Both the position numbers and the translations under genes were made by a program. A stretch of 64,000 bases of DNA from NCBI RefSeq assembly GCF_030064165.1, contig NZ_CP125947.1, positions 124,001-188,000 of the forward strand. The letters are read 5' to 3'. Below, in pieces: positions 3,731 through 23,704 of the stretch (positions within the stretch are counted from its first letter, which is position 1; every line of letters begins with the position of its first letter). The notes beneath the pieces were generated by a model that had not been told where the DNA came from, did no database searches, and saw only the letters and a list, made by a program, of their open reading frames with translations. The stretch comes from Comamonas resistens. Lineage in GTDB: Bacteria > Pseudomonadota > Gammaproteobacteria > Burkholderiales > Burkholderiaceae_C.

Positions 3731-4645
3731 TCAGCAATTGTCTGCTTGCCTTTCGCGCAACAACTGCAGGAAGCGTCGTGCGGCCAGGCCCATGGGGCGC
3801 TCCTTGGACCAGACCCAGTCGACGAACAGCGTGGTGCCGTTGCTCAGGCTTTGCACGGGAATCACCATCAGGCTGCCGGCAGCGATATGGGGTTCCACCC
3901 GGCTCAGGGGCAGCCAGCCCCAGCCCAGGCCCGCGCTGATGAGGGACAGCGCCGCCTGGTGGCTGTCCGTGCGCCAGCGCTGTTGGGCGAAGACAAAGCG
4001 CGCGTCGATCTGCGCCAGGTCGCGGCTGGCCATCAGGATCTGCCGCGCGGCGGCCAGTTGTTCCACGGTCAACCTGGCCTTGGGGCCTTGTTCGGCCATG
4101 GCCTTCTGCCAGGGCGCGAAGCTGGGGGCCATCACGGCCACCAGGGTCTCGCGGCCCATTTCCTGGAAGCCTTCGCGGCCGTCGATGGCAGGGCGCTCGA
4201 AGACCAGGGCCAGGTGGGCTCGCCCTGTATGCAACAGTTCGAGCGCATCGTTTTGCGAGGCGGCCAGCACCTCGATGGGCAGGGTCGGAAACTCCTGCAC
4301 CAGTTGGGCCAGGGTGCCGGTCCAGTGGGTAGATTGCAGCTCGGGCGCAATGGCCAGCGTCAGCCGCTCCTCCAGGCCCTGGTGCAGGGCGCTGGCCTGC
4401 CAGTTGAGCTGCTGCAGCTGCTCGGCCAGCAGGCGTGCCTGCGGCTCCAGCGCACGTGCGGCTGCCGTGGGCACGGGCTCGCGCCCGCTGCGGTCGAAGA
4501 GCTGCAGGTCCAGTTCGGCCTCCAGCTGGGCAACGGCCATGCTGACGGCCGATGGCACGCGCCCCAGCTTGCGCGCGGCGGCGGAAAAAGAGCCGGCATC
4601 AAGCACGGCCAGAAACAGGGGGACTTGGTCGGCGGCAAATGGCAT
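3731..4645 (-). CDS. LysR-family transcriptional regulator, divergent from PACE efflux gene
   Basis: A 304-residue LysR-type regulator. The N-terminal winged helix (residues 1-60) shows FLAVLDAGSFSAAARKLG followed by PSAVSMAVAQLE, and an effector-binding domain follows. The ATG at 4645 gives the canonical LysR start (MPFAADQVPLFLAV); a longer frame to 4768 would run into the divergent gene and is rejected. It shares a 71-bp intergenic region with the PACE efflux gene, the arrangement seen for AceR/AceI, so it probably controls that gene. A CTGAAA...TTTCAG inverted pair lies at 4666-4671 and 4694-4699 in the shared promoter. Confidence 0.88.
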   Translation of the reverse strand: MPFAADQVPLFLAVLDAGSFSAAARKLGRVPSAVSMAVAQLEAELDLQLFDRSGREPVPTAAARALEPQARLLAEQLQQLNWQASALHQGLEERLTLAIAPELQSTHWTGTLAQLVQEFPTLPIEVLAASQNDALELLHTGRAHLALVFERPAIDGREGFQEMGRETLVAVMAPSFAPWQKAMAEQGPKARLTVEQLAAARQILMASRDLAQIDARFVFAQQRWRTDSHQAALSLISAGLGWGWLPLSRVEPHIAAGSLMVIPVQSLSNGTTLFVDWVWSKERPMGLAARRFLQLLRERQADNC

Positions 4646-4716
4646 GCTGCGATGTATCAGAAAAACTGAAAGAAGCTGACTTTTATCTTCAATTTTCAGA
4701 ACATACACTGCCTCCC

Positions 4717-5250
4717 ATGTCTCAACAAGTTTCTGTTTCCACTGCGGCGATTGCCTCTGCATCCGCATCGCCTTCCGTTTCCAGCACCGCCCGCGAGGAG
4801 GCCCGTGCGCAGGCCACAGGCCTGCAGGGCCCCAAGCGTCGCATCGTCTATGTCGGTCTGTACGAAACCATTGCCATCATCGTCTCCAGCCTGATCTTCA
4901 TGGCCATAGGCCAAAAGGCCAGCGACTCCGGCGTCATGGCCGTGGCGGCCTCCGTCATTGCCATCTGCTGGAATCTGAGCTTCAACTACCTGTTTGAAAA
5001 ATGGGAAGCCAGCCAGAGCGTCAAGGGACGCTCGGTGCTGCGCCGTGTGGTGCATGCCATCGGCTTTGAAGGCGGTATCGCCGCCATGCTGATCCCGCTG
5101 ATGGCCTGGTGGTTCAACATCTCGCTGTGGGAAGCTGCGGTGATGGAAGCCGGCCTGCTGGTGTTCTTCATGGTCTACACCTTTGCCTTCAACTGGGGCT
5201 TTGACCGCCTCTTCGGCCTGCCCGCTTCCGCCCAGGCGCTGACGAAATGA
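4717..5250 (+). CDS. PACE-family (AceI-like) multidrug/biocide efflux transporter
   Basis: A 177-residue inner-membrane protein with four predicted membrane helices arranged as two bacterial transmembrane pair (BTP) units. Diagnostic PACE motifs are present: RIVYVGLYETIAI, with the conserved membrane Glu of helix 1; WNLSFNYLFEKWE; RVVHAIGFEGG; and FAFNWGFDRLF. Known members export chlorhexidine, acriflavine or short diamines in exchange for protons. About 38 Ser/Ala-rich cytoplasmic residues precede helix 1. ATG at 4717 is chosen because upstream in-frame codons overlap the divergent LysR gene. A strong bidirectional terminator follows 50 bp after the stop. Confidence 0.88.
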   Translation: MSQQVSVSTAAIASASASPSVSSTAREEARAQATGLQGPKRRIVYVGLYETIAIIVSSLIFMAIGQKASDSGVMAVAASVIAICWNLSFNYLFEKWEASQSVKGRSVLRRVVHAIGFEGGIAAMLIPLMAWWFNISLWEAAVMEAGLLVFFMVYTFAFNWGFDRLFGLPASAQALTK

Positions 5251-6589: not shown

Positions 6590-7006
6590 AAATAATCTCC
6601 AAAGGGTTCCAGGCGACGACGGGTGGCCCAGCCAGCAGCGGGCGGGCCTGTCGTGCGCGGGTGCGTACTGCGTGCGGAGGCTGCACCGATGGTGCCAAAG
6701 CCCGCAAAAGCATTGCTGTAGGTACTTGTCCAGTTGTGGGGACAGCCTGCCCCAGAGGGCAGGCCACAACCAGCCGACCTCGCGTGCATGAGGTCATGCA
6801 ACACAGGCCATAGCGTGAATATGCGCGAAATGCGATGTCTGCATTCGCTGTTAGCGAAATTACCTTGGCGTTTACCCGCATTTTCATAAAGCTGACAAGC
6901 GGGGATCTGCTAATAGGGCGCTCCCAAAAGGGCTCGCCAAGTGGTTGTTGCAAATAAATACATATCACATGTACACATGACATGTGATGAATGCTAAGGT
7001 CAAAGC
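6590..7006. other. gltS-yjfI divergent intergenic region
   Basis: 417 bp without a supported gene. It must carry the gltS promoter (minus) and the yjfI promoter (plus). Near the middle is TTCGCT-GTT-AGCGAA (6844-6858), and close to yjfI a 25-bp palindrome is listed separately. Nothing else is recognisable. Confidence 0.6.
6964..6988. promoter_or_regulatory. Palindromic operator candidate before yjfI-pspA operon
   Basis: ATCACATGT-N7-ACATGTGAT: perfect 9-bp arms. The spacer itself contains ACATG, so the site reads as overlapping ACATGT units. It lies 18 bp upstream of the yjfI start, a position suited to repression. Confidence 0.55.
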
Positions 7007-7645
7007 ATGGAACATAAGACATCAGCCCACTACCAGAGATTGCACCGGCAAAGACTGCGTGAGCAGGGGCTGGTGAAGAAGGAAGTCTGGATTCTTCCCG
7101 AGCACAGCCCGCTGCTGCAGCGGCTGGAAAAGCAGATGCGCCTGCCACAGGCGCTGCCGGACTCATTGCTGATCGACCACAAGGAGGGCTCTATGGATAG
7201 TGCAAACCATGCGTACTCGAGTATTCACAGCTTGGCCGACGACCTGCAGCAAAGCGCGCTGGCGCGCGATGGCAGGTTGCATGTCGAGGTGCTTGAGGGT
7301 GCCGATGCCAGCGTGCTGGTGACCCTGCCGGAGTTCGGCGACCTGCCTGTGCACCTGGCCCTCTCGGGCGAGCAACTGGTGGTGGAGGCCTTTCTCTGGC
7401 CTGCCGACCAGGTCAAGGACCGTGCAGGCCTGAACGAGCAGATCCTGCGCCTGCAAAAGCTCTTTCCCTTCACGACCATGGCGCTGGAGCCCATGGCCCA
7501 CGGCGGCGAAGGCTATGTGATGTTCGCGGCCCTGAGGGCGACCAGCAGCTGCGAGGACATCGTCAGCGAAATCCTCACGTTGTCCGACAGCGTGATCCAG
7601 GCCACCGAAGCGCTGCAAGCCCATTTGTCGCTGGCGCAGGCCTGA
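7007..7645 (+). CDS. yjfI: YjfI family protein (DUF2170)
   Basis: A 212-residue cytoplasmic protein matching the YjfI/DUF2170 family in layout. The N-terminus (residues 1-45) is basic and helical (RLHRQRLREQGLVKKEVWIL), resembling small DNA-binding or adaptor segments. The rest is an acidic alpha/beta domain with LVTLPEFGDLPVHLALSGEQ and the terminal DIVSEILTLSDSVIQATEAL. AAGGT lies 6 bp before the ATG. It is the first gene of a run with pspA, yqiJ, yqiK and a large AAA+ ATPase; in E. coli yjfI likewise precedes a pspA paralogue (yjfJ). Its biochemical role is unknown. Confidence 0.85.
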   Translation: MEHKTSAHYQRLHRQRLREQGLVKKEVWILPEHSPLLQRLEKQMRLPQALPDSLLIDHKEGSMDSANHAYSSIHSLADDLQQSALARDGRLHVEVLEGADASVLVTLPEFGDLPVHLALSGEQLVVEAFLWPADQVKDRAGLNEQILRLQKLFPFTTMALEPMAHGGEGYVMFAALRATSSCEDIVSEILTLSDSVIQATEALQAHLSLAQA

Positions 7646-7694
7646 AGCGTGTCAGACCCTTTTCCTCTACAACCCACAGCCCCAGGAGAACATC

Positions 7695-8402
7695 ATGGCA
7701 GTTTGGAACAAGCTGGTGACAGCACTGCGCGGCGCGGCCCATGAGGCCGGGGAAGCCGTCACGGACAGCCAGGCGCTGCGCATACTCGACCAGGAAATCC
7801 GCGATGCTGACAATGACCTGAGCAAGTCCCGCGAAGCGCTGGCCGAGATCATGGCCAAGCAAAAGCTTGCGGCCGGCAAGCTGCAGACCACGCAGTCCAG
7901 GCTTGCCGAATACGAAGGCTATGCCGTCAAGGCGCTGGATACCGGCGACGAGACGCTGGCGCTGGAAGTGGCCGGCAAGGTTGCCCTGCTGGAAGCGCAG
8001 CGTGACGAGGAGCAGGCGCAGCTGCAGGCTTTCACCCTGAGCGTGGAGCAACTGCGCGAGGCCATACAGACGGCACAGACCAATATCCGCCGCCTCAAGC
8101 AACAGGCCGATACGGTCAAGGCTACCGAAAGCGTGCAGCGCGCCCAGGCCACGGTGGCGGGCCGTTATACGGGCTCGCAATCGCGCGTGCAGACGGCGCT
8201 GGATTCGCTGGAGCGCATCAAGCAAAAACAGGCCGAGCGCGGCGCGCGGCTGCAAAGCGCGGCCGAGCTGGCACAGGACGGCACGGAAGATGCGCTGGAT
8301 GCCAAGCTCAGGGCTGCGGGCATTGCCCCCCAGGCCGGCGACGCCAGAACCGTGCTGGAGCGCCTGAAGGCCCAGCGCGCGGGCGGCGACAAGCCCGCTT
8401 GA
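7695..8402 (+). CDS. pspA: PspA/IM30 family protein (YjfJ-type)
   Basis: A 235-residue PspA/IM30 (bacterial ESCRT-III-like) protein. It is mostly long alpha-helical coiled coil: N-terminal helix AVWNKLVTALRGAAHEAGEA, then a hairpin region (residues about 28-190) rich in Ala, Gln, Glu and Lys. The C-terminus carries a short helix (DALDAKLRAAGI). Family members bind stressed inner membrane and polymerise. AGGAG is correctly spaced before the ATG. It lies 49 bp after yjfI and 81 bp before yqiJ, all co-directional, so one operon is likely. There is no pspF/pspBC nearby, so sigma54-type control is not indicated. Confidence 0.92.
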   Translation: MAVWNKLVTALRGAAHEAGEAVTDSQALRILDQEIRDADNDLSKSREALAEIMAKQKLAAGKLQTTQSRLAEYEGYAVKALDTGDETLALEVAGKVALLEAQRDEEQAQLQAFTLSVEQLREAIQTAQTNIRRLKQQADTVKATESVQRAQATVAGRYTGSQSRVQTALDSLERIKQKQAERGARLQSAAELAQDGTEDALDAKLRAAGIAPQAGDARTVLERLKAQRAGGDKPA

Positions 8403-8483
8403 CGTTGGCCCGGGCAAGGGCAGGAGCAACAAGAGGCTGCCGGGGCCTCCCGGGCAATACCTCACCGTACGAAAGGAAACAAT

Positions 8484-9149
8484 ATGAGCGCTTTCTTGCA
8501 GTACGCATTCGGCTTTCCCACCTTCATTTTTGGGGCGCTGCTGGCGTTCATGCTGCTGTATTGGCTGGTGGCGCTCGTGGGCCTGGTGGAAACCGATGCG
8601 ATCGACCACTGGGTGCTGTTCGACGGCAGCGACCATGCGCATGGGGTCGAGCATTCGGCCAGTGCACTGGCCGGCCTGCTGCTCAAGGTGGGGCTGGGCG
8701 GCATTCCTTTGACGGTGATCCTCACGGTGCTGTTTCTGCTGGCGTGGCTGGCGTCCTATCTGCTGTGCCATCTGGTGCCCATGCCCCAGGGCTGGACCTG
8801 GATCAATGTGCTGACCGGCAGCGTGGTGGCTGCGGCGGCGCTGGTGCTGGGCTTTGTGACCACCGTGCTGGTGCTGCGCCCGCTGCGTGGTGTCGTCAAC
8901 AAAATCGCACCGGCTGAAGAGCCCAAGGTGCTGCTGGGCCGCAGCGGCATGGTGCGCAGCGCCGTGGTCAACGCCGCGCAGGGCTATGGCAGCGTGGACG
9001 ATGGCGGCGGTGGCCTGAACCTTCAACTGCGCTCGCCGGAGCGCGAGCTGGTGCGTGGCACCGAGGTGGTGTTGATCGAGCATCTGCCCGAGCAGGGCGC
9101 CTGGCGCGTTGTCAGCAAGGCCGAGTTCGACGGCGGCGAAATGGGGTGA
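8484..9149 (+). CDS. yqiJ: YqiJ family inner-membrane protein (OB-fold, NfeD-like partner of flotillin)
   Basis: A 221-residue membrane protein. Three hydrophobic segments occupy residues about 8-35, 68-98 and 105-132. A soluble C-terminal beta-rich domain (about 148-215) contains LLGRSGMVRSAVVNAAQGYG and GTEVVLIEH, in keeping with the OB fold of YqiJ/NfeD-type proteins. AAGGA precedes the ATG. YqiJ and NfeD proteins are usually encoded next to flotillins, as here (yqiK follows after 90 bp). A role as a membrane partner of the flotillin scaffold is inferred from that linkage. Confidence 0.85.
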   Translation: MSAFLQYAFGFPTFIFGALLAFMLLYWLVALVGLVETDAIDHWVLFDGSDHAHGVEHSASALAGLLLKVGLGGIPLTVILTVLFLLAWLASYLLCHLVPMPQGWTWINVLTGSVVAAAALVLGFVTTVLVLRPLRGVVNKIAPAEEPKVLLGRSGMVRSAVVNAAQGYGSVDDGGGGLNLQLRSPERELVRGTEVVLIEHLPEQGAWRVVSKAEFDGGEMG

Positions 9150-9239
9150 CACATTGGGATGAGACATGACGTGTGCATGAAATGCGCACGCCATGTGGAT
9201 GGTGTTTTCTTGATGATTTATTGACTGGGGAGATTCGTT

Positions 9240-11327
9240 ATGGGTTTGGACAATATGGAGTGGTACATCGTTGTCGGGGTGGTGATCGGTTCGATCTTCA
9301 TCATCATCCTGGGGCTGTTTGCACTGATCAAGGCCTTCTATATCAAGGTGCCTCAGGGTACGGCGCTGATCATCAACGACACGACATCCCAGCCCAAGGT
9401 CAAGTTCACCGGCGGCCTGGTGCTGCCCGTAATCCACAAGAAGGAGTTCATGCGCATCTCGCTGATCACGCTGGAGATCGACCGACGTGGCAAGGAAGGC
9501 CTGATCTGCAAGGACAATATGCGCGCTGACATCACGGTGGCCTTCTATCTGCGCGTCAATGAAACGGCGCAGGATGTGCTGAAGGTGGCCAAGGCCATAG
9601 GCGTGGAGCGTGCCTCCGACAAGGTGGCCGTCAACGAGCTGTTCAATGCCAAGTTCTCCGAGGCGCTCAAGACCGTGGGCAAGCAGATCGACTTCGTCAA
9701 ACTGTTCGAGAACCGCCAGGACTTCCGCGACCAGATCATTCATGTGATCGGCAACGACCTCAACGGCTATGTGCTCGAAGACGTGGCCATCGACTACCTG
9801 GAGCAGACGCCCAAGTCGTCGCTGGACCCGAACAACATCCTGGACTCCGAGGGCATCCGCAAGATCACCGAGCTGACGGCCAACCAGAACATCGTCACCA
9901 ACGAGCTCGAACGCAATGCCGAGCTGGCCGTGACCAAGAAAAACGTCGAGACCAAGGAAGCCATGCTGGCCCTGGAGCGCCAGCAGGCCGACGCCGAGGC
10001 CCGCCAGAAGCGCGAGATCGCCACCATCCAGGCGCGCGAGCAGGCCGAGACCCAGAAGGTGCAGGAGGAAGAGCGCCTCAAGGCCGAACAGGCCCGTATC
10101 CAGACGCAGGAACAGCTCGATATCCGCGAGGAAAACCGCCAGCGCGAAGTGGCCGTGGCCCAGCAGAACCGCGAGCGTGCGGTGGTGATCGAGGTCGAGA
10201 AGGTCACCCGCGCCCGCGATCTGGAAGTGGTGGCTCGTCAGCGCGAGGTGGAACTGCAGCGCATCGAGAAGGAAAAGGCCATCGAAGTCGAGAAGGCCAA
10301 CATCGCCAACGTGGTGCGCGAGCGCGTCGCGGTCGAGAAAACCGTGGCGCAGGAGGAAGAGCGCATCAAGGAAGTGCGCGCGGTGTCCGAAGCCGAGCGC
10401 ATGAAGCAGGTGACCGTGCTGACGGCCGAGGCCGCGGCCCAGGAAGAGCTGGTGCGCCAGGTCAAGAAGGCCGAGGCGGACGAGACCGCATCACGCCACA
10501 AGGCCGTGGAAGTGACCACCATGGCCCAGGCCGAACTGGAGGCCGCGGGCAAGACCGCCGAGGCCAAGAAAAAGCTGGCCGAGGCCATCGAGGTGGAGCG
10601 CGCGGCGCCGGGCCTGGCCGATGCCAAGGTGCGCGAAGTGACCGCCGCCGCCATCGAGAAGGAAGGCATGGCGCAGGCCAAGGTCATCGCCGAAAAGCTG
10701 CTGGCCGAGGCCCGGGGCGAGCAGGAAAAGGGTCTGGCCGAGGTGCGCGTGATCGAAGCCCAGGCCGATGCCAATGAAAAGCTGGGCCTGGCCGATGCCA
10801 AGGTGCTGGAGGAGCGTCTGCTGGCCCAGGCGCGCGGCGAAGCTCAGGTGGGAAATACCAAGGCCGTGGTGACCCGTGAGGTGGGACAGTCCGAAGCCGA
10901 TGTGCTGCAGGGCAAGCTGTTTGCCGAGGCCAAGGGCCTGACCGAGAAGTTCTCGGCCCTGGGTTCGCTGTCCGACCAGGCGCGTTCGCACGAAGAGTTC
11001 CGCATGCAGCTGGAAAAGAACTTCGAGCAGGCGCTGGCCGCCATCGAAGCGAACAAGACCGTGGCGCAGGAGCAGGCCGAGGTGCTGTCGGCCGCGCTGT
11101 CCAAGGCCAATATCGACATCGTCGGCGGTGGTGGCGATTTCTTCAACAACTTTGCCAAGGCGCTGTCCGTGGGCAAGGCCGTGGAAGGCGTGTCCGCCAA
11201 GAGCCCCATCGTGCAGGAGCTGCTGGGCAAGTTCCTCGGGGGCAAGTCCCTGTCTGCGGATACCCTCAGCGGCCTGCTCAACGGCGGCAGCAAGGGCCTG
11301 CCGCCCGCACAGAACAGCGCGGAGTAG
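9240..11327 (+). CDS. yqiK: Flotillin/YqiK family membrane scaffold protein
   Basis: A 695-residue flotillin. One N-terminal membrane segment (WYIVVGVVIGSIFIIILGLF, residues about 8-30) is followed by an SPFH domain (about 35-215; GTALIINDTTSQPKVKF, DNMRADITVAFYLRV). A very long Glu/Ala/Lys/Arg coiled coil (about 225-560) with many AEARxE-type repeats comes next, then a C-terminal oligomerisation segment ending in a Gly/Ser tail. GGGAG lies 7 bp before the ATG. Flotillins organise membrane microdomains and control fluidity. Its place between yqiJ and a giant ATPase, with pspA upstream, suggests a membrane-maintenance complex. Confidence 0.93.
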   Translation: MGLDNMEWYIVVGVVIGSIFIIILGLFALIKAFYIKVPQGTALIINDTTSQPKVKFTGGLVLPVIHKKEFMRISLITLEIDRRGKEGLICKDNMRADITVAFYLRVNETAQDVLKVAKAIGVERASDKVAVNELFNAKFSEALKTVGKQIDFVKLFENRQDFRDQIIHVIGNDLNGYVLEDVAIDYLEQTPKSSLDPNNILDSEGIRKITELTANQNIVTNELERNAELAVTKKNVETKEAMLALERQQADAEARQKREIATIQAREQAETQKVQEEERLKAEQARIQTQEQLDIREENRQREVAVAQQNRERAVVIEVEKVTRARDLEVVARQREVELQRIEKEKAIEVEKANIANVVRERVAVEKTVAQEEERIKEVRAVSEAERMKQVTVLTAEAAAQEELVRQVKKAEADETASRHKAVEVTTMAQAELEAAGKTAEAKKKLAEAIEVERAAPGLADAKVREVTAAAIEKEGMAQAKVIAEKLLAEARGEQEKGLAEVRVIEAQADANEKLGLADAKVLEERLLAQARGEAQVGNTKAVVTREVGQSEADVLQGKLFAEAKGLTEKFSALGSLSDQARSHEEFRMQLEKNFEQALAAIEANKTVAQEQAEVLSAALSKANIDIVGGGGDFFNNFAKALSVGKAVEGVSAKSPIVQELLGKFLGGKSLSADTLSGLLNGGSKGLPPAQNSAE

Positions 11328-11448
11328 GCGCGCGATGTTGCCCGATTCCACCTTCGCTTGCGGGCGTGGATCGGGGTGAATCGAGCGCGGGCAGGCTGTG
11401 CGCGTTTCGTCCGCTCCTGCTCGCTTTGAGCGAAAGCCATTGAATTCC

Positions 11449-14400
11449 ATGTCCGAAAACACCTCTCCCGCCGAACTCCAATCCACCTCCGCGGTCGATC
11501 AGGCCGTCGCCAGCGGCGGCTCGTATGAAGTTCTGGCCAAGCGGCTCGATGCCCAGGGCCAGGCGCTGGAAGCCCTGGTACGCCAGCTCAACGAAGAGCG
11601 GCTGGAGGAGTTTGGCCGCAGCCAGATGGAAGTCGTCGGCCGCATGCGTGTGCGCACCGAGAACAATTGCCTGGGCCGCGATATCGCCCAGGTCGGCGGC
11701 TATCTGCTGTTTGGCTACAACGTCTTCATGGGACTGAAGCGGGAGACGCGCGTCGAGGACGTATTTGCACTGTACCGCCTGCACGAAGGCGAGCAGGGCT
11801 ACGAGGTCACGCCGGTGGATCTCAAGGAGAGCTTTCTCGGCATACAGAGCTTTGTGCAGGACTTCCAGGAGCTCTACGCCTACTACAAGAACACCAAGCT
11901 GATGCAGCTGGCCGTGCGCGACGGCAAGCTGCTGGCCAGCTTCCAGATCGGCGAGCGCCTGACCGATGTGCGCGTTTTCCGCTGGTCGGTATCGTCCGAT
12001 GGTCAGCAGATCCGCTATATCGACAACCGTGGCGAGCGCGATATCGAGCTGCCCGCACCCCATGACTTCGAGTGGCAGCGCGCGGGTCGCGAGCAGCTGG
12101 TGCAGGGGCGCTATCCGCATCTCAATATTCTGGACAAGGTGTTTGTCGAGACGCTGGGTGGCGATCTGACCATCAAGGTGGAGAACAACACCAACGATGG
12201 CCTGGGCATCTACCGTGAGCCCGTGCAGGAAAAGAACCAGTCGCTGGACGATGCGGTGTTCGAATACGCGGCCGTGGGCAGCCTGATCCTGCTCAAGATC
12301 CTGCCCTACCGCGAGGAGCAGTGGCGCTATCTGGTCTACAACACCTTGTCGCAGCAGGTGCTGCGCATGGACTCCATCGGTTCGGCCTGCATACAGCTGC
12401 CCGATGACCACGGCATCATCTTTCCCGGCGGCTACTACCTGCAAAGCGGCGAGCACCGCTCGTTCGAGCAGAACATGCAGGGCATGCGCTACCGGCGCAG
12501 CATCCGCTCGCCCAATGGCGAGGATGTGCTCTACATCTTCTACGAGCCCGAAAGCGGGCGCATGGCGCTGTTCAAGTACAACCTCATCGAGCGTGCGCTG
12601 CAGCCGCCGCTGGTAGGCCATGGCTATGCGCGGCTGGAGGACGGGCGCATCGTCATCTTCGCGGCCGAGAGCAACGAGGCCTCGCGCGTGCACCCCATGC
12701 AGGTCTGGCATACGCCGTTTGCCTCGGAAGACTATGCGGCGCGCCAGCCGCAGCGTGACAGCTTTCTGGGCCGCATCGGCAATGCCGAGCTGGTCAGCGG
12801 CATCTCCGACTTCTTCAGCGTGCGCAAGGAAATTGCGGCGACCGAGGTTTCGCTACCCCGCTACGAGCGGTTGATAGACAGCACGCGCCGCCTGTTCGAG
12901 CGCTACCACTGGCTGGGCACGCCCACGCTCAAGACACTCAACGAAGCGCTGCTGGGCATCGTCGCCACGGGCGATGCGGTGATCGACGAATACGAAAAGG
13001 TCGAGAGCATCCGCCAGGCCTCGGCGCGTGCCATGGCCGAGGTCTCGGGCCGCCACCAGGCCCTGCTCAAGCAGTTGCGCAGCTCGGACTGGGAAACGGT
13101 GGACGAGCATGTGCAGGCGCTGAGTCAGCTGGGCCAGCTGCGCGGCCAACTGATGTCCACGCGCGAGCTGCGCTATGTGGACCAGGGCGCCATCGACGCC
13201 ATGGTCGCAGCCGCTGGCGAACAACAGGCCGAGGTCTCGCAGCAGACGGCGGCCTTCATTGCCACCGACGCGGCCCTGCAGCCCTATGTGCAGCAATTGC
13301 AGGAGCTGGACCAGGCGGCGCAGGCGGCCACCACGGTGGCGCAGATCGGCGAGCCCATGCAGAAGATGGCGGACATGGCCGGCGCGCTGGACATGCTCTC
13401 CGAGCTCATGGGCAGCCTGCAGATCGCCGATGCCACGCAGCGCACGCAGGTGGTGGACCGCATTTCGACCATTTACGCGCGCCTGAACCAGGTGCGTGCA
13501 CGCGCCCAGCAGCGCAAAAGCACGCTGGGCAGTGCTGAAAACGTGGCCCAGTTCGCGGCCCAGCTGGCCCTGTTCTCGCAAAGCATAGTCAGCGCATTGA
13601 ATCTGGCGCAGACGCCCGAGCGCTGCGACGAGCAGCTGGCGCGCCTGCTGGTGCAGCTGGAGGAGATCGAAGGCCAGTTCGGCGAGCACGAACAGTTCCT
13701 GGGCGACATCGTGGCCAAGCGCGAGGAAGTGCTGGAGACCTTCGAGGCCCACCGGCAGGCGCAGCAGGATGAGCGCCAGCGCCGCGCCCAGGGCGTGCTG
13801 GACGCTGCGCTGCGCATCGTGCAAAGCTTGCCCAAGCGCACGGAAAAGCTGGCCAGCTCCGATGCCCTGCATGCCTTCTTCGCGGGCGATCCGCTGATCG
13901 CCAAGCTCAAGGAGCTGGCGCAGCGCCTGCGCGAGGAGCTGCACGATCCCGTCAAGGCCGACGATATCGACAGCCGCATCAAGACGCTGCGCGACCAGGC
14001 CTTCCGTGCGCTGCAGGACCGCACCGACCTGTACGAAGGCGACGGCAACCTGATCCGGCTGGGGCGCCACCGCTTCTCCGTGGGCAACCAGGAACTGGAG
14101 CTGACCTTGCTGCCCCGTGGCAAGGAGTTGTTCCTGCATATCGTGGGCACCGAGTATTTCGAGCCCGTGAACAACGCCGAACTGGCGGGCCTGCAGGGAT
14201 ACTGGGATGCGGCCACGCCGGCCGAGTCGCCCAGCCTCTACCGCGGCGAATATCTGGCGCTGCAAGTGGTGCGAGCCATGCGCGCGGGCCGCGAGGGCTG
14301 GAACCAGAACCGTCTGCGGCAGCTACTGCCCGATACCGAGGCGCTGACCCAGGCGATACGCGAATTCGCCGCGCCGCGCTACCGTGAAGGCTACGAGCGC

Positions 14401-16998
14401 GGCATTCACGACCATGATGCGGCCCTGATCCTGCAGGCCCTGACTCCGTTGGCCGATGCGGCCGGAGCGCTGCGCCATGCGCCCCATGCGCGCAGTCTGG
14501 CGGCCCTGTTCTGGAGCCGCAGAGACCGCATACAGCAGCCCCGGCTGGCAGCGGCCATTGCGCTGTGGCCCGAAAGAGCGCAGCAGGCCCAGGCCATGCA
14601 GCAGCTGTTTGCCAGCGACGCGCAGAAAAGCCAGCTGCAGGCCGATATGGCTGTGCAACTGCTGGCCTTTGCCCGGGATGAGGAGTTGCTGGACGATTTG
14701 CTGGCCAGCGACCCGACTCGTGATGGCACGGGCGTCGATGCGGACGGCGCAGATTCCGAACAGTCCGCAGAGATCGCCAGCCTGGTGAACGCCGCTGCCG
14801 AATACCTGCTGGCCGAGCTGGCGCAAAAGGCCTTGCGCTTCCACGCCTCGGGCGCCAGCCAGACGCTGATAGCTGCACTGCAGGCGGCCATGAAGGCCGG
14901 CAGCCAGGAAGGCGGGCTGCACTGGGAGGAGCTGCAGGCCTACTGGAGCGCCAAGGCCGCAGGCCGTGGCAGCGAAGGCGCGGCACTGGCCGAACGCTGG
15001 CGCAGCGCGTTGCACTGGGTACAGACCGCATGCAGTGCGCAGGTCGGGGACGAGACGACCTCACTCCAGGCTTACTGCAGCGAAGCCGCGACCTGGCTGG
15101 TCTGCGCCGGCAACCTGCCCAGCACCGTGAGCAATGTGGACCTGCAGGTGCAGATACCAGGCCTGCTGGGCCAGCATGCCCGCATCATTGACGGCCAGAT
15201 GCATTTGCAGCTCGACCAGCTGGGTACGCGTGCGGCGCGCCACTACCGGCTCTTCGTGCCGCAGTGGGAGCGCTACCAGCAGCTGCGCCAGCAGGTGCTG
15301 CAGGACTATCGGGCACGCATACGCCTGGAGGAATTCAAGGCGCGGCCCCTGTCCTCCTTTGTGCGCAACAAGCTCATCAATGAAGTCTACCTGCCCGTCA
15401 TAGGCGACAACCTGGCCAAGCAGATGGGCGCACAGGGCGAGGCCCGCCGCACCGACCAGATGGGCCTGCTGATGATGATCTCGCCCCCTGGCTACGGCAA
15501 GACCACCTTGATGGAATATGTGGCCAGCCGCCTGGGCCTGATCTTCATGAAGATCAACGGCCCGGCACTCGGCCATTCCGTGCGCTCGCTGGACCCGGCG
15601 CAGGCGCCCGATGCCACGGCCGCCAAGGAGCTGGAAAAGCTCAACCTGGCGCTGGAGATGGCCAACAACGTGATGCTGTACGTGGACGACATACAGCACA
15701 CGCACCCCGAGTTCTTGCAGAAGTTCATTTCGCTGTCCGACGGCACGCGCCGCATCGAAGGCGTGTGGCAGGGCCAGACCAAGACCTACGACATGCGCGG
15801 CAAGCGCTTTTGCGTGGTCATGTCGGGCAACCCGTACACCGAGTCGGGCGAGGTCTTCAAGATTCCCGACATGCTGGCCAACCGTGCCGACATCTACAAC
15901 CTCGGCGACGTGCTGGGCGGCATGGAGGAGGTCTTCAAGCTCAGCTACATCGAAAACAGCATGACCAGCAATGCCGTGCTCGCACCCATGGCCACGCGCA
16001 GCCTGCAGGACCTGTACCTGCTGCTGGACAAGGCGCAGGGCAAGGAAGTCTCTGCCAATGCACTCAGCCACGACTACGCGCCCGCCGAGCTGCGCGAAAT
16101 CGAAGCCGTGCTCCAGCGCATGCTGCAGGTGCGCGAGGTGGTGTTCCGCATCAACCAGCAATACATTCTGAGCGCCGCCCAGGACGACGACTACCGCACC
16201 GAGCCCGCGTTCAGGCTGCAGGGCAGCTACCGCAACATGAACAAGCTGGCCGAGAAGATCACGCCGGTGATGAACGACCAGGAAATGCAGCAGATGCTCG
16301 ACGACCACTACCAGGGCGAAGCGCAGATGCTGACCACGGGCGCCGAGGAGAACCTGCTCAAGCTCAAGCAGTTGCGCGGCCATGCCAGCGGCGCGGAGAG
16401 CGCGCGCTGGGAGGAAATCCGCACCCAGTTCCTGCGCCACAAGGCCGCCGGCGGCGCCAATGCCGATGCCGGCACGCGTGTGGCCACGCAGCTGGTCGAC
16501 CTGGTGGCCGCCACACGCGAGATGGCGCATGGCATGGCCGATGCGCGCCAGCAGCAGGCCGAACAGCTGGCACTGTGGCGCGATGCCGACCAGGGTCAGG
16601 ACGCGGCGCAGCGCGAGGGCTGGCAGGCGCTGCTGGCGCAATTGCAACGGGCACAGAGCGCCACCGACCAGTCCCTGCAAGGCATACGCCAGGCGCTGGC
16701 CGAGGTCGGCAGCCGTGAAGACAGAAACGGGTCGCAAGACTCTGCGCAAAGCGGTCTGGCCAGCTTGCTGGGTCAGGTGATGGCGCACTCGCTGCAGCCG
16801 GTGGTCGAGCATCTGGAGCAAAGCCGCAACCAGCAACTGGGTCTGCACCGTGTGCTCATGCAGGTGGCCACGCGCATGCAGGAGCAGATCGACAGCCAGC
16901 GCGCACAGCTGCAACGAGCCAGCACGCAGTCCACGCTGCATGCCGGCGAGATAGACCGGGCCTTTGACCGCATGCAGGAGGGGCGGGGACCCAGGTAA
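11449..16998 (+). CDS. Giant AAA+ ATPase (DUF3686 / 'DNA repair ATPase' type)
   Basis: A 1849-residue protein of the type annotated 'DNA repair ATPase'. The N-terminal region (about 30-480) matches the DUF3686 pattern, with ENNCLGRDIAQVGGYLLFGYN and a beta-propeller-like series such as DGQQIRYIDNRGERDIELP. A long coiled-coil middle (about 490-900) follows, then a helical region, and one AAA+ module near residues 1330-1560. Walker A is ISPPGYGKTTLM (about 1344-1355). Walker B is MLYVDDIQH, with Asp where Glu is usual, and sensor 1 is VVMSGNPY. Another coiled coil closes the protein. The ATG at 11449 is preferred over an upstream GTG at 11398. No nuclease or DNA-binding motif is seen, so 'DNA repair' is a label only. 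Linkage to pspA and flotillin points to membrane remodelling. Confidence 0.87.
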   Translation: MSENTSPAELQSTSAVDQAVASGGSYEVLAKRLDAQGQALEALVRQLNEERLEEFGRSQMEVVGRMRVRTENNCLGRDIAQVGGYLLFGYNVFMGLKRETRVEDVFALYRLHEGEQGYEVTPVDLKESFLGIQSFVQDFQELYAYYKNTKLMQLAVRDGKLLASFQIGERLTDVRVFRWSVSSDGQQIRYIDNRGERDIELPAPHDFEWQRAGREQLVQGRYPHLNILDKVFVETLGGDLTIKVENNTNDGLGIYREPVQEKNQSLDDAVFEYAAVGSLILLKILPYREEQWRYLVYNTLSQQVLRMDSIGSACIQLPDDHGIIFPGGYYLQSGEHRSFEQNMQGMRYRRSIRSPNGEDVLYIFYEPESGRMALFKYNLIERALQPPLVGHGYARLEDGRIVIFAAESNEASRVHPMQVWHTPFASEDYAARQPQRDSFLGRIGNAELVSGISDFFSVRKEIAATEVSLPRYERLIDSTRRLFERYHWLGTPTLKTLNEALLGIVATGDAVIDEYEKVESIRQASARAMAEVSGRHQALLKQLRSSDWETVDEHVQALSQLGQLRGQLMSTRELRYVDQGAIDAMVAAAGEQQAEVSQQTAAFIATDAALQPYVQQLQELDQAAQAATTVAQIGEPMQKMADMAGALDMLSELMGSLQIADATQRTQVVDRISTIYARLNQVRARAQQRKSTLGSAENVAQFAAQLALFSQSIVSALNLAQTPERCDEQLARLLVQLEEIEGQFGEHEQFLGDIVAKREEVLETFEAHRQAQQDERQRRAQGVLDAALRIVQSLPKRTEKLASSDALHAFFAGDPLIAKLKELAQRLREELHDPVKADDIDSRIKTLRDQAFRALQDRTDLYEGDGNLIRLGRHRFSVGNQELELTLLPRGKELFLHIVGTEYFEPVNNAELAGLQGYWDAATPAESPSLYRGEYLALQVVRAMRAGREGWNQNRLRQLLPDTEALTQAIREFAAPRYREGYERGIHDHDAALILQALTPLADAAGALRHAPHARSLAALFWSRRDRIQQPRLAAAIALWPERAQQAQAMQQLFASDAQKSQLQADMAVQLLAFARDEELLDDLLASDPTRDGTGVDADGADSEQSAEIASLVNAAAEYLLAELAQKALRFHASGASQTLIAALQAAMKAGSQEGGLHWEELQAYWSAKAAGRGSEGAALAERWRSALHWVQTACSAQVGDETTSLQAYCSEAATWLVCAGNLPSTVSNVDLQVQIPGLLGQHARIIDGQMHLQLDQLGTRAARHYRLFVPQWERYQQLRQQVLQDYRARIRLEEFKARPLSSFVRNKLINEVYLPVIGDNLAKQMGAQGEARRTDQMGLLMMISPPGYGKTTLMEYVASRLGLIFMKINGPALGHSVRSLDPAQAPDATAAKELEKLNLALEMANNVMLYVDDIQHTHPEFLQKFISLSDGTRRIEGVWQGQTKTYDMRGKRFCVVMSGNPYTESGEVFKIPDMLANRADIYNLGDVLGGMEEVFKLSYIENSMTSNAVLAPMATRSLQDLYLLLDKAQGKEVSANALSHDYAPAELREIEAVLQRMLQVREVVFRINQQYILSAAQDDDYRTEPAFRLQGSYRNMNKLAEKITPVMNDQEMQQMLDDHYQGEAQMLTTGAEENLLKLKQLRGHASGAESARWEEIRTQFLRHKAAGGANADAGTRVATQLVDLVAATREMAHGMADARQQQAEQLALWRDADQGQDAAQREGWQALLAQLQRAQSATDQSLQGIRQALAEVGSREDRNGSQDSAQSGLASLLGQVMAHSLQPVVEHLEQSRNQQLGLHRVLMQVATRMQEQIDSQRAQLQRASTQSTLHAGEIDRAFDRMQEGRGPR

Positions 16999-20812: not shown

Positions 20813-20921
20813 CCGCCTCCAAGGAGCGCTGCAGCCAGCCGGTTGTCCACCACAACCCGCCCGTCAGGCTTGGGGGTGCGCAGATGGTCTCAGACCTCTG
20901 TCTCCATAACGGCGCTCACCT
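20813..20921 (+). ncRNA. S-adenosylhomocysteine (SAH) riboswitch upstream of metH
   Basis: The conserved SAH-riboswitch core is present: CCTCCAAGGAGCGCTGCA at the 5' side and AACGGCGCTCACC at the 3' side (20908-20920). CCAAG of the 5' strand pairs with CTTGG (near 20868-20872, in TCAGGCTTGG), forming P1. GAGCGC pairs with GCGCTC as the pseudoknot. A variable hairpin lies between. SAH riboswitches switch on recycling genes such as metH and ahcY when SAH accumulates; the metH start lies about 40 bp downstream. A cobalamin riboswitch was considered, but its conserved B12 box is not seen. Confidence 0.9.
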
Positions 20922-20959
20922 GTTCTCGATTCTGTCTGGTTTGTATACAGGTGAGCCTC

Positions 20960-23704
<2,745 letters not shown>

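What the first reader, a model, noticed from the sequence alone, without database searches (positions are those of the whole stretch)
6964..16998. YjfI-PspA-YqiJ-flotillin-giant AAA+ ATPase: a candidate membrane-remodelling system
Five co-directional genes with short gaps combine an ESCRT-III-like PspA, a YqiJ/flotillin pair and an 1849-residue AAA+ ATPase labelled only as 'DNA repair'. In eukaryotes ESCRT-III polymers are remodelled by the AAA ATPase Vps4; here a large AAA+ protein is encoded with a PspA and a lipid-raft scaffold. No DNA-binding or nuclease motif is visible in the ATPase. A large mechanosensitive channel gene follows. The modules are known separately (E. coli yjfI-yjfJ and yqiJ-yqiK); their union with the ATPase is the point of interest.
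Basis: partly seen in the sequence, partly recalled or inferred. Interest (0 to 1): 0.78.

Follow-up and report, generated by a model that had tools for sequence, protein, structure and literature searches.

The report
PspA membrane operon with built-in switch
The five genes form a membrane-stress operon of a type already described by others, but its first protein seems to carry an overlooked DNA-binding domain matched to a paired palindrome in the operon's own promoter, so the system probably controls itself.

Summary
The five genes are real, co-directional and conserved. Their union is in print: Ravi 2024 describes this gene set, and Wallart 2024 reports a co-transcribed P. aeruginosa counterpart. 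The ATPase's constant partner is YqiJ-YqiK (70 of 70 loci); YjfI-PspA is nearby in 50 of 70. Its AAA+ fold is closest to NorQ/CbbQ (MoxR type), so Vps4 is a comparison of role. The downstream channel is a local neighbour.

New is the control layer. The window's YjfI has a basic ~50-residue N-terminal domain outside DUF2170, distantly related to MazE-like antitoxins. Of 36 loci with it, 34 have two or more ACATGT boxes before yjfI; of 16 with YjfI lacking it, none has two. Those 16 all carry a separate ~108-residue gene after pspA, and 15 have another palindrome (GACATnnnATGTC), seen in 0 of the 36. In one of four genomes with a split system that palindrome precedes both halves.

Best model: a cis-encoded repressor, fused to or encoded beside the PspA-binding chaperone, couples PspA status to expression. 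YjfI-PspA contact is predicted elsewhere; DNA binding and signalling are inferred. A ribbon-helix-helix fold was not shown.

The parts
6964..6988 (.). Promoter palindrome: two ACATGT boxes (6967-6972 and 6980-6985) in a perfect 9-bp inverted repeat with 7-bp spacer; proposed operator of YjfI
   Evidence: Inverted repeat; conserved in aligned relatives; pattern found once per genome in 13 of 53 genus genomes; 34 of 36 N-domain loci have two or more boxes
7007..7645 (+). yjfI (bacA-like), 212 aa
7007..7150 (+). YjfI N-terminal domain (residues 1-48), basic, proposed DNA-binding domain
   Evidence: pI 10.5 against 4.5 for residues 73-212; 18 invariant positions in 21 sequences; distant MazE-like relation
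7223..7627 (+). DUF2170 (CesT/Tir-like) domain, residues 73-207
   Evidence: Pfam PF09938 151.4 bits; solved relative 8q8o covers only this part
7695..8402 (+). pspA (PspA/IM30, ESCRT-III-like), 235 aa
   Evidence: PF04012 166.4 bits; Vipp1/PspA chains in the PDB
8484..9149 (+). yqiJ-like membrane protein, 221 aa
   Evidence: Conserved in 70 of 70 loci; YqiJ_N in 1 of 14 homologues
9240..11327 (+). yqiK-like SPFH/flotillin protein, 695 aa
   Evidence: Conserved in 70 of 70 loci; Band_7 in 1 of 14 homologues
11449..16998 (+). DUF3686 AAA+ ATPase, 1849 aa
   Evidence: 4448 homologues at E 0.001 or better
11566..12909 (+). DUF3686 (residues 40-487), mostly beta-propeller in the model
15448..15960 (+). 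AAA+ core: Walker A K1351, Walker B D1413/D1414, N1461, R1479; R1595 lies further on

Best explanation
The locus is a bac-type Psp operon that senses and acts on the inner membrane and carries its own transcriptional switch. (1) Effector part: PspA (ESCRT-III-like) and an SPFH/flotillin scaffold with its membrane partner YqiJ work at the inner membrane; the propeller-bearing AAA+ ATPase most likely remodels the YqiK scaffold, and through it PspA (inferred). (2) Control part: YjfI is a two-domain protein. Its C-terminal DUF2170 chaperone-like domain binds PspA (predicted and reported by others); its N-terminal basic domain binds two ACATGT boxes before yjfI and represses the operon (inferred from the coupling of domain and boxes). 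When membrane stress changes the pool of PspA, YjfI occupancy at the promoter changes and the operon is released (inferred; direction of the signal unknown). (3) In relatives whose YjfI lacks this domain, the role passes to a separate ~108-residue protein encoded after pspA, with a different palindrome, GACATnnnATGTC. Shown here: the genes, the linkage, the domains, the boxes and their coupling. Inferred: DNA binding, repression, PspA as signal, the ATPase's substrate.
For: Gene set. Gained and lost as a unit in the genus: DUF3686 in 15 of 53 genomes, DUF2170 in the same 15, YqiK at 57% identity or more in the same 15 (5 further genomes have 29-30% matches). Boxes: 34 of 36 N-domain loci have two or more ACATGT in 250 bp, against 0 of 16 without the domain; the next best of 64 self-complementary hexamers reaches 2 loci. 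After thinning to below 60% YjfI identity, 8 of 9 against 0 of 7. ATYACATGTRAT occurs in 25 of 80 loci (1.75 Mb), at the yjfI promoter in each. One perfect site per genome in 13 of 53 genus genomes, 0 of 38 genomes without the operon (read). Alternative pair: the ~108-residue gene in the 16 loci with short YjfI and 0 of the 34 N-domain loci in that set; GACATn(1-5)ATGTC in 15 of 16 against 0 of 36. Second set of 26 loci: palindrome and gene together 10, palindrome alone 1, gene alone 0, neither 15; the 6 N-domain loci there have neither. Variant N-domains go with variant palindromes. Split system in G007: GACATnnnATGTC before both yjfI and the distant yqiJ. Published: bacA insertion raises BacB-F 6.1- to 13.5-fold; BacA-BacB contact predicted at 0.981.
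Against: No binding experiment. The published bacA mutant is a transposon insertion with a resistance cassette and the word 'complement' does not occur in the paper, so the rise of BacB-F could be read-through. Both earlier papers propose a sigma-54 promoter. The N-domain shows no signal to an RHH_1 set (0.3%; that set held at least one wrong-strand sequence), and the window's own N-domain is below the MazE-like cut-off (13.3 against 22 bits). Two N-domain loci lack the box pair (L063 none, L044 one); of 6 N-domain loci in the second set only 1 has two ACATGT (the others have other palindromes or imperfect ones). G405 and G428 carry the operon without a perfect genus-type site. One locus has the second palindrome without the 108-residue gene in 4.6 kb (L196), and the palindrome occurs four times in one of 6 genomes and twice in another. 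Only 1 of 4 genomes with a split system shows the palindrome at both halves. ATPase substrate: no evidence beyond linkage.
Confidence: 0.6

Rival explanations
1. The boxes are bound by an unlinked regulator and have merely been inherited with the N-domain form of YjfI.
For: Domain and boxes are both ancestral traits of related loci; the count falls to 2 of 3 at a 50% identity threshold.
Against: One perfect site per genome and none in 38 operon-free genomes of the same genus leave nothing else for an unlinked regulator to control at that stringency; a second, different palindrome appears where the domain is replaced by a separate gene; box spacing drifts from 13 to 29 bp while the box is kept.
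Confidence: 0.2
2. The operon is driven by sigma-54 and a PspF-like activator, as proposed for P. aeruginosa.
For: Proposed by Mace 2008 (passages) and Wallart 2024 (section).
Against: No GG-N10-GC core in the 220 bp before yjfI here, and no candidate by the scan used in 250 bp of the window; across 36 upstream regions the best candidates, 2-7 mismatches from consensus, lie at scattered places. The best sigma-70-like promoter has a box between -35 and -10 in 30 of 35 loci, against a mean of 14 and a maximum of 20 in shuffles, though the window's own promoter match is poor (4 mismatches). The P. aeruginosa promoter itself was not seen.
Confidence: 0.1
3. The ATPase serves only the YqiJ-YqiK scaffold; PspA and YjfI are a separately evolved neighbour with no direct dealings with it.
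For: YqiJ-YqiK in 70 of 70 loci, PspA in 51 of 70; in 22 YjfI-less loci with YqiJ only 1 has the second palindrome before yqiJ.
Against: All 8 ATPase genomes of 398 also hold DUF2170, against 50 of 398 overall; the order is repeated in two divergent arrangements (L089, L094); a shared palindrome in one split system.
Confidence: 0.35
4. The ATPase is a DNA-repair enzyme, as its database label says.
For: The database label; weak RuvB matches (18-19 bits).
Against: The RuvB matches are under the curated cut-offs (27 and 282-299 bits) and confined to about 46 residues round the P-loop; the neighbours are membrane proteins in 70 of 70 loci.
Confidence: 0.03

Closest known systems
CesT/Tir-PspA operon group with band-7/flotillin, YqiJ and propeller-AAA+ (Ravi et al. 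2024, PMC11237479)
   Same: Same five components, named one by one in the passage read; PLD in some, as found here in 30 of 66 loci.
   Different: The passages read mention neither a DNA-binding domain in YjfI nor operators; rhomboid has 0 occurrences but is next to the ATPase in 15 of 66 loci here.
bac operon, bacABCDEF, of P. aeruginosa (Mace 2008 PMC2587700; Wallart 2024 PMC10948618)
   Same: DUF2170 first, PspA second, six co-transcribed genes; negative effect of BacA on the rest. That bacE is this ATPase is my inference from position; a P. aeruginosa homologue with 59% identity exists.
   Different: 139 residues crystallised and 16 kDa quoted, against 206 positions in NCBIfam's BacA model, which the window's protein matches from residue 1: the published work seems to concern the DUF2170 part only. 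'DNA-binding' and 'ribbon-helix' occur 0 times there.
E. coli yjfIJKL (passages of PMC12492005)
   Same: yjfI next to a PspA relative; envelope-stress role proposed.
   Different: No ATPase in that operon as described; its activating mutation is a promoter deletion. The E. coli sequence was not examined here.
B. subtilis PspA-YdjG/H/I (abstract of PMC8581546)
   Same: An SPFH protein needed to bring PspA to the membrane.
   Different: Different partners; no AAA+ or DUF2170 mentioned in the abstract.
MoxR-type AAA+ (NorQ, CbbQ)
   Different: 12-16% identity; dynein follows at 14.5, tied with CbbQ; long propeller and coiled-coil N-terminal part.

Membership tests
CesT/Tir-PspA-flotillin-AAA+ operon group (Ravi 2024) | DUF2170, PspA, YqiJ-like, band-7/flotillin-like and propeller-AAA+ genes together | tested here: met
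   the YqiJ and flotillin labels rest on homologues
bac operon | One transcript over all genes | not testable with these tools
   Published for PA14 only
Classical psp system | PspA/IM30 protein | tested here: met
   PF04012 166.4 bits, cut-off 33.9
Classical psp system | PspF, PspB, PspC | tested here: inconclusive
   None among the genes scanned beside the operon; rest of the genome not searched
Vps4 / classical AAA | Classical AAA domain, closest by fold to Vps4 or p97 | tested here: inconclusive
   PF00004 26.9 bits, above its cut-off 21.2, and weak p97 hits by sequence; fold list led by NorQ/CbbQ
MoxR-type AAA+ | AAA_5 domain and MoxR-type fold | tested here: met
MoxR-type AAA+ | VWA partner encoded beside it (recalled feature) | tested here: inconclusive
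   No VWA family in the scanned neighbours
MazE-like antitoxin (PF11455) | Pfam score above cut-off in the N-terminal domain | tested here: inconclusive
   Window 13.3 bits, below 22; 1 of 8 other N-domains above it (L148, 25.2 bits); profile comparison 79%, reversed control 0.1%
Ribbon-helix-helix repressor | Similarity of the N-domain to RHH_1 | tested here: inconclusive
   0.3% for the N-domain; 21-23% for the two halves of the 108-residue protein against 0.2-0.3% reversed; the reference set had a wrong-strand member
Autorepressor | Specific binding to the promoter palindrome | not testable with these tools
   Comparative coupling only

The most novel reading that the evidence does not exclude
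YjfI is the missing counterpart of PspF in a large class of Psp systems: a PspA chaperone fused to a repressor, so that PspA status is read directly at the promoter, and this DNA-binding module has been exchanged in evolution for a separate protein with a new operator while the circuit was kept.
Probability: 0.4. Interest if true: 0.75.

Novelty: new variant of a known kind. Interest (0 to 1): 0.55.

Why it matters
How PspA systems without PspF are controlled is open. If YjfI is a PspA-reading repressor, the question becomes testable with one purified protein and a 25-bp DNA, it explains why yjfI and pspA are neighbours across the phylum, and it warns that published work on BacA may have used a protein without its DNA-binding end. 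Two unrelated-looking regulator-operator pairs on one operon would also be a clear natural case of regulator exchange.

Tried and rejected
A C-terminal helix of PspA that resembled an ESCRT-III motif for Vps4-type binding (motif recalled) was rejected as evidence for ATPase binding: it is present with or without the ATPase gene. A MIT-like domain in the ATPase was not seen in the structure comparisons, and Vps4 is not in the lists shown; that is no proof of absence. Sequence searches of the PDB with the N-domain, the MazE-like set and the 108-residue protein gave no meaningful relative (the last lists Vps4 MIT chains at E 0.55-0.59, which I take as chance). YqiK has no solved relative by sequence. 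The sigma-54 reading was tested and found no shared site. The mechanosensitive channel was dropped as a part. Rfam gave one match in the window, unrelated. Rows set aside: 10 of 80 loci with under 4.8 kb upstream; L072 has only 15 bp before yjfI and is counted as a miss. Fisher values (1.5e-11; 2e-6) ignore relatedness. No paper on the N-domain or operators turned up in the search listings.
Full report
What is there. The last three gaps are 81, 90 and 121 bases (ATG at 11449). Labels for genes 3 and 4 rest on homologues.

Conservation. Of these, 70 have 4.8 kb or more upstream: YqiJ and YqiK are present in 70 of 70, PspA in 51, YjfI in 50; 50 have all five, 48 in the window's order and strand, and two (Hahella L089, Marinobacter L094) with yjfI-pspA turned round. 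In the window's genus the unit is present or absent as a whole: DUF3686 in 15 of 53 genomes, DUF2170 in the same 15, close YqiK in the same 15. In a draw of 398 genomes of the phylum, DUF3686 is in 8 and DUF2170 in 50, including all 8. Downstream, PLD genes follow in 30 of 66 loci and rhomboid genes in 15 of 66; the channel of the window in 1 of 66.

Already known. [quoted passage not shown] Wallart 2024 shows RT-PCR products across each junction of bacA-bacF in P. aeruginosa PA14 and 6.1- to 13.5-fold more of the other Bac proteins in a bacA insertion mutant.

The overlooked domain. YjfI residues 1-48 lie outside DUF2170, have a pI of 10.5 against 4.5 for the rest, and in 36 long YjfI are better conserved than DUF2170 itself (mean majority fraction 0.88 for residues 4-32 against 0.68). 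Pfam gives a weak MazE-like match here (13.3 bits, cut-off 22); one alphaproteobacterial-type relative (L148) passes the cut-off (25.2 bits). A profile of 15 varied N-domains matches a MazE-like profile at 79%, reversed 0.1%; the close relatives alone give 20%. A ribbon-helix-helix fold, which I first suspected from memory, got no support (0.3%).

The boxes. Before yjfI lies ATCACATGT-N7-ACATGTGAT (6964-6988). In the genus the pattern TYACATGT-N7-ACATGTRA occurs at one place per genome in 13 of 53 genomes, each of the 13 an operon carrier and each place at the yjfI promoter; two carriers, G405 and G428, have no perfect site; the 38 others have none. With two mismatches one further site appears in the window's genome, and the reversed control pattern matches in 3 of 6 genomes. 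Over all YjfI loci, 34 of 36 with the N-domain have two or more ACATGT in 250 bp against 0 of 16 without it; no other self-complementary hexamer exceeds 2 loci. Thinned to under 60% identity: 8 of 9 against 0 of 7. In nine further genomes, pairs of ACATGT 7-18 bases apart are not rarer elsewhere than the reversed control, so the bare hexamer pair is not unique in a genome; the longer box is the specific feature. In 30 of 35 loci a box lies between the -35 and -10 of the best sigma-70-like site, shuffles 14 on average: a place suited to repression.

The exchange. The 16 loci whose YjfI lacks the N-domain all carry a gene of about 108 codons after pspA; the 34 N-domain loci of that set do not. 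Of the 16, 15 have GACATn(1-5)ATGTC before yjfI (the other has only 15 bp of upstream sequence), against 0 of 36. In a second set of 26 loci, chosen mostly from the phylum draw and fetched with longer flanks, palindrome and gene occur together in 10, palindrome alone in 1, gene alone in 0, neither in 15; 6 of the 15 are N-domain loci. Some of these had been picked knowing the palindrome but not the gene. Variant N-domains go with other palindromes: L147 TTCATGTTACGCGTAACATGAA, L151 CTCACGCGTGAG twice. The 108-residue protein's two halves each resemble RHH_1 weakly (21-23%, reversed 0.2-0.3%); Pfam gives RHH_9 in 1 of 11 at E 0.052. In six genomes the 15-base form is found once in 4, twice in 1, four times in 1.

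Split systems. In four genomes of the phylum draw the two halves are on different places. In G007 the second palindrome stands before both yjfI and yqiJ; in G140 and G195 before yjfI only; in G050 before neither. The divergent loci L089 and L094 have it in the shared gap, and L113 has it before yqiJ.

How it probably works. A CesT/Tir-like domain that binds PspA is joined, in one polypeptide or as operon neighbours, to a DNA-binding module specific for the operon's promoter. The BacA-BacB contact is predicted at 0.981 in a 2026 paper (passages) and called strong in unpublished work cited by Wallart. PspA engaged with stressed membrane would change how much YjfI is free to hold the promoter; the direction is not known. 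This parallels PspA holding PspF, as summarised in a passage read, by other parts. The main weakness is that no binding has been measured and that the published mutant is an insertion without complementation.

A point for the literature. The solved BacA (8q8o) aligns only to residues 73-208, 139 residues were crystallised and 16 kDa was quoted for PA3732, while NCBIfam's BacA model has 206 positions. The N-domain may have been left out by a late annotated start; I have not seen the P. aeruginosa sequence.

Noticed in passing
window 20815-20924: SAH riboswitch (Rfam RF01057, 44.5 bits) just before a methionine synthase gene with B12 domains (20843-23704 frame).
   Followed up: no
window 9164-9200: Imperfect palindromic stretch in the gap between the yqiJ-like and yqiK-like genes; function unknown.
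   Followed up: no
L034 5491-7887: In a relative with 93% identical ATPase, a DctP solute-binding protein gene and a luciferase-like monooxygenase gene lie between yqiK and the ATPase gene.
   Followed up: partly
L045 7653-9583: In Lampropedia hyalina an NYN-domain gene and a Pol-beta-type nucleotidyltransferase gene lie between yqiK and the ATPase gene.
   Followed up: no
L046 15205-15750 and similar: Rhomboid-family gene directly after the ATPase in 15 of 66 loci, not mentioned in the Ravi passages read.
   Followed up: partly
window 4552-5250: Two-repeat chlorhexidine-type efflux (BTP) gene beside a LysR regulator on the other strand.
   Followed up: no
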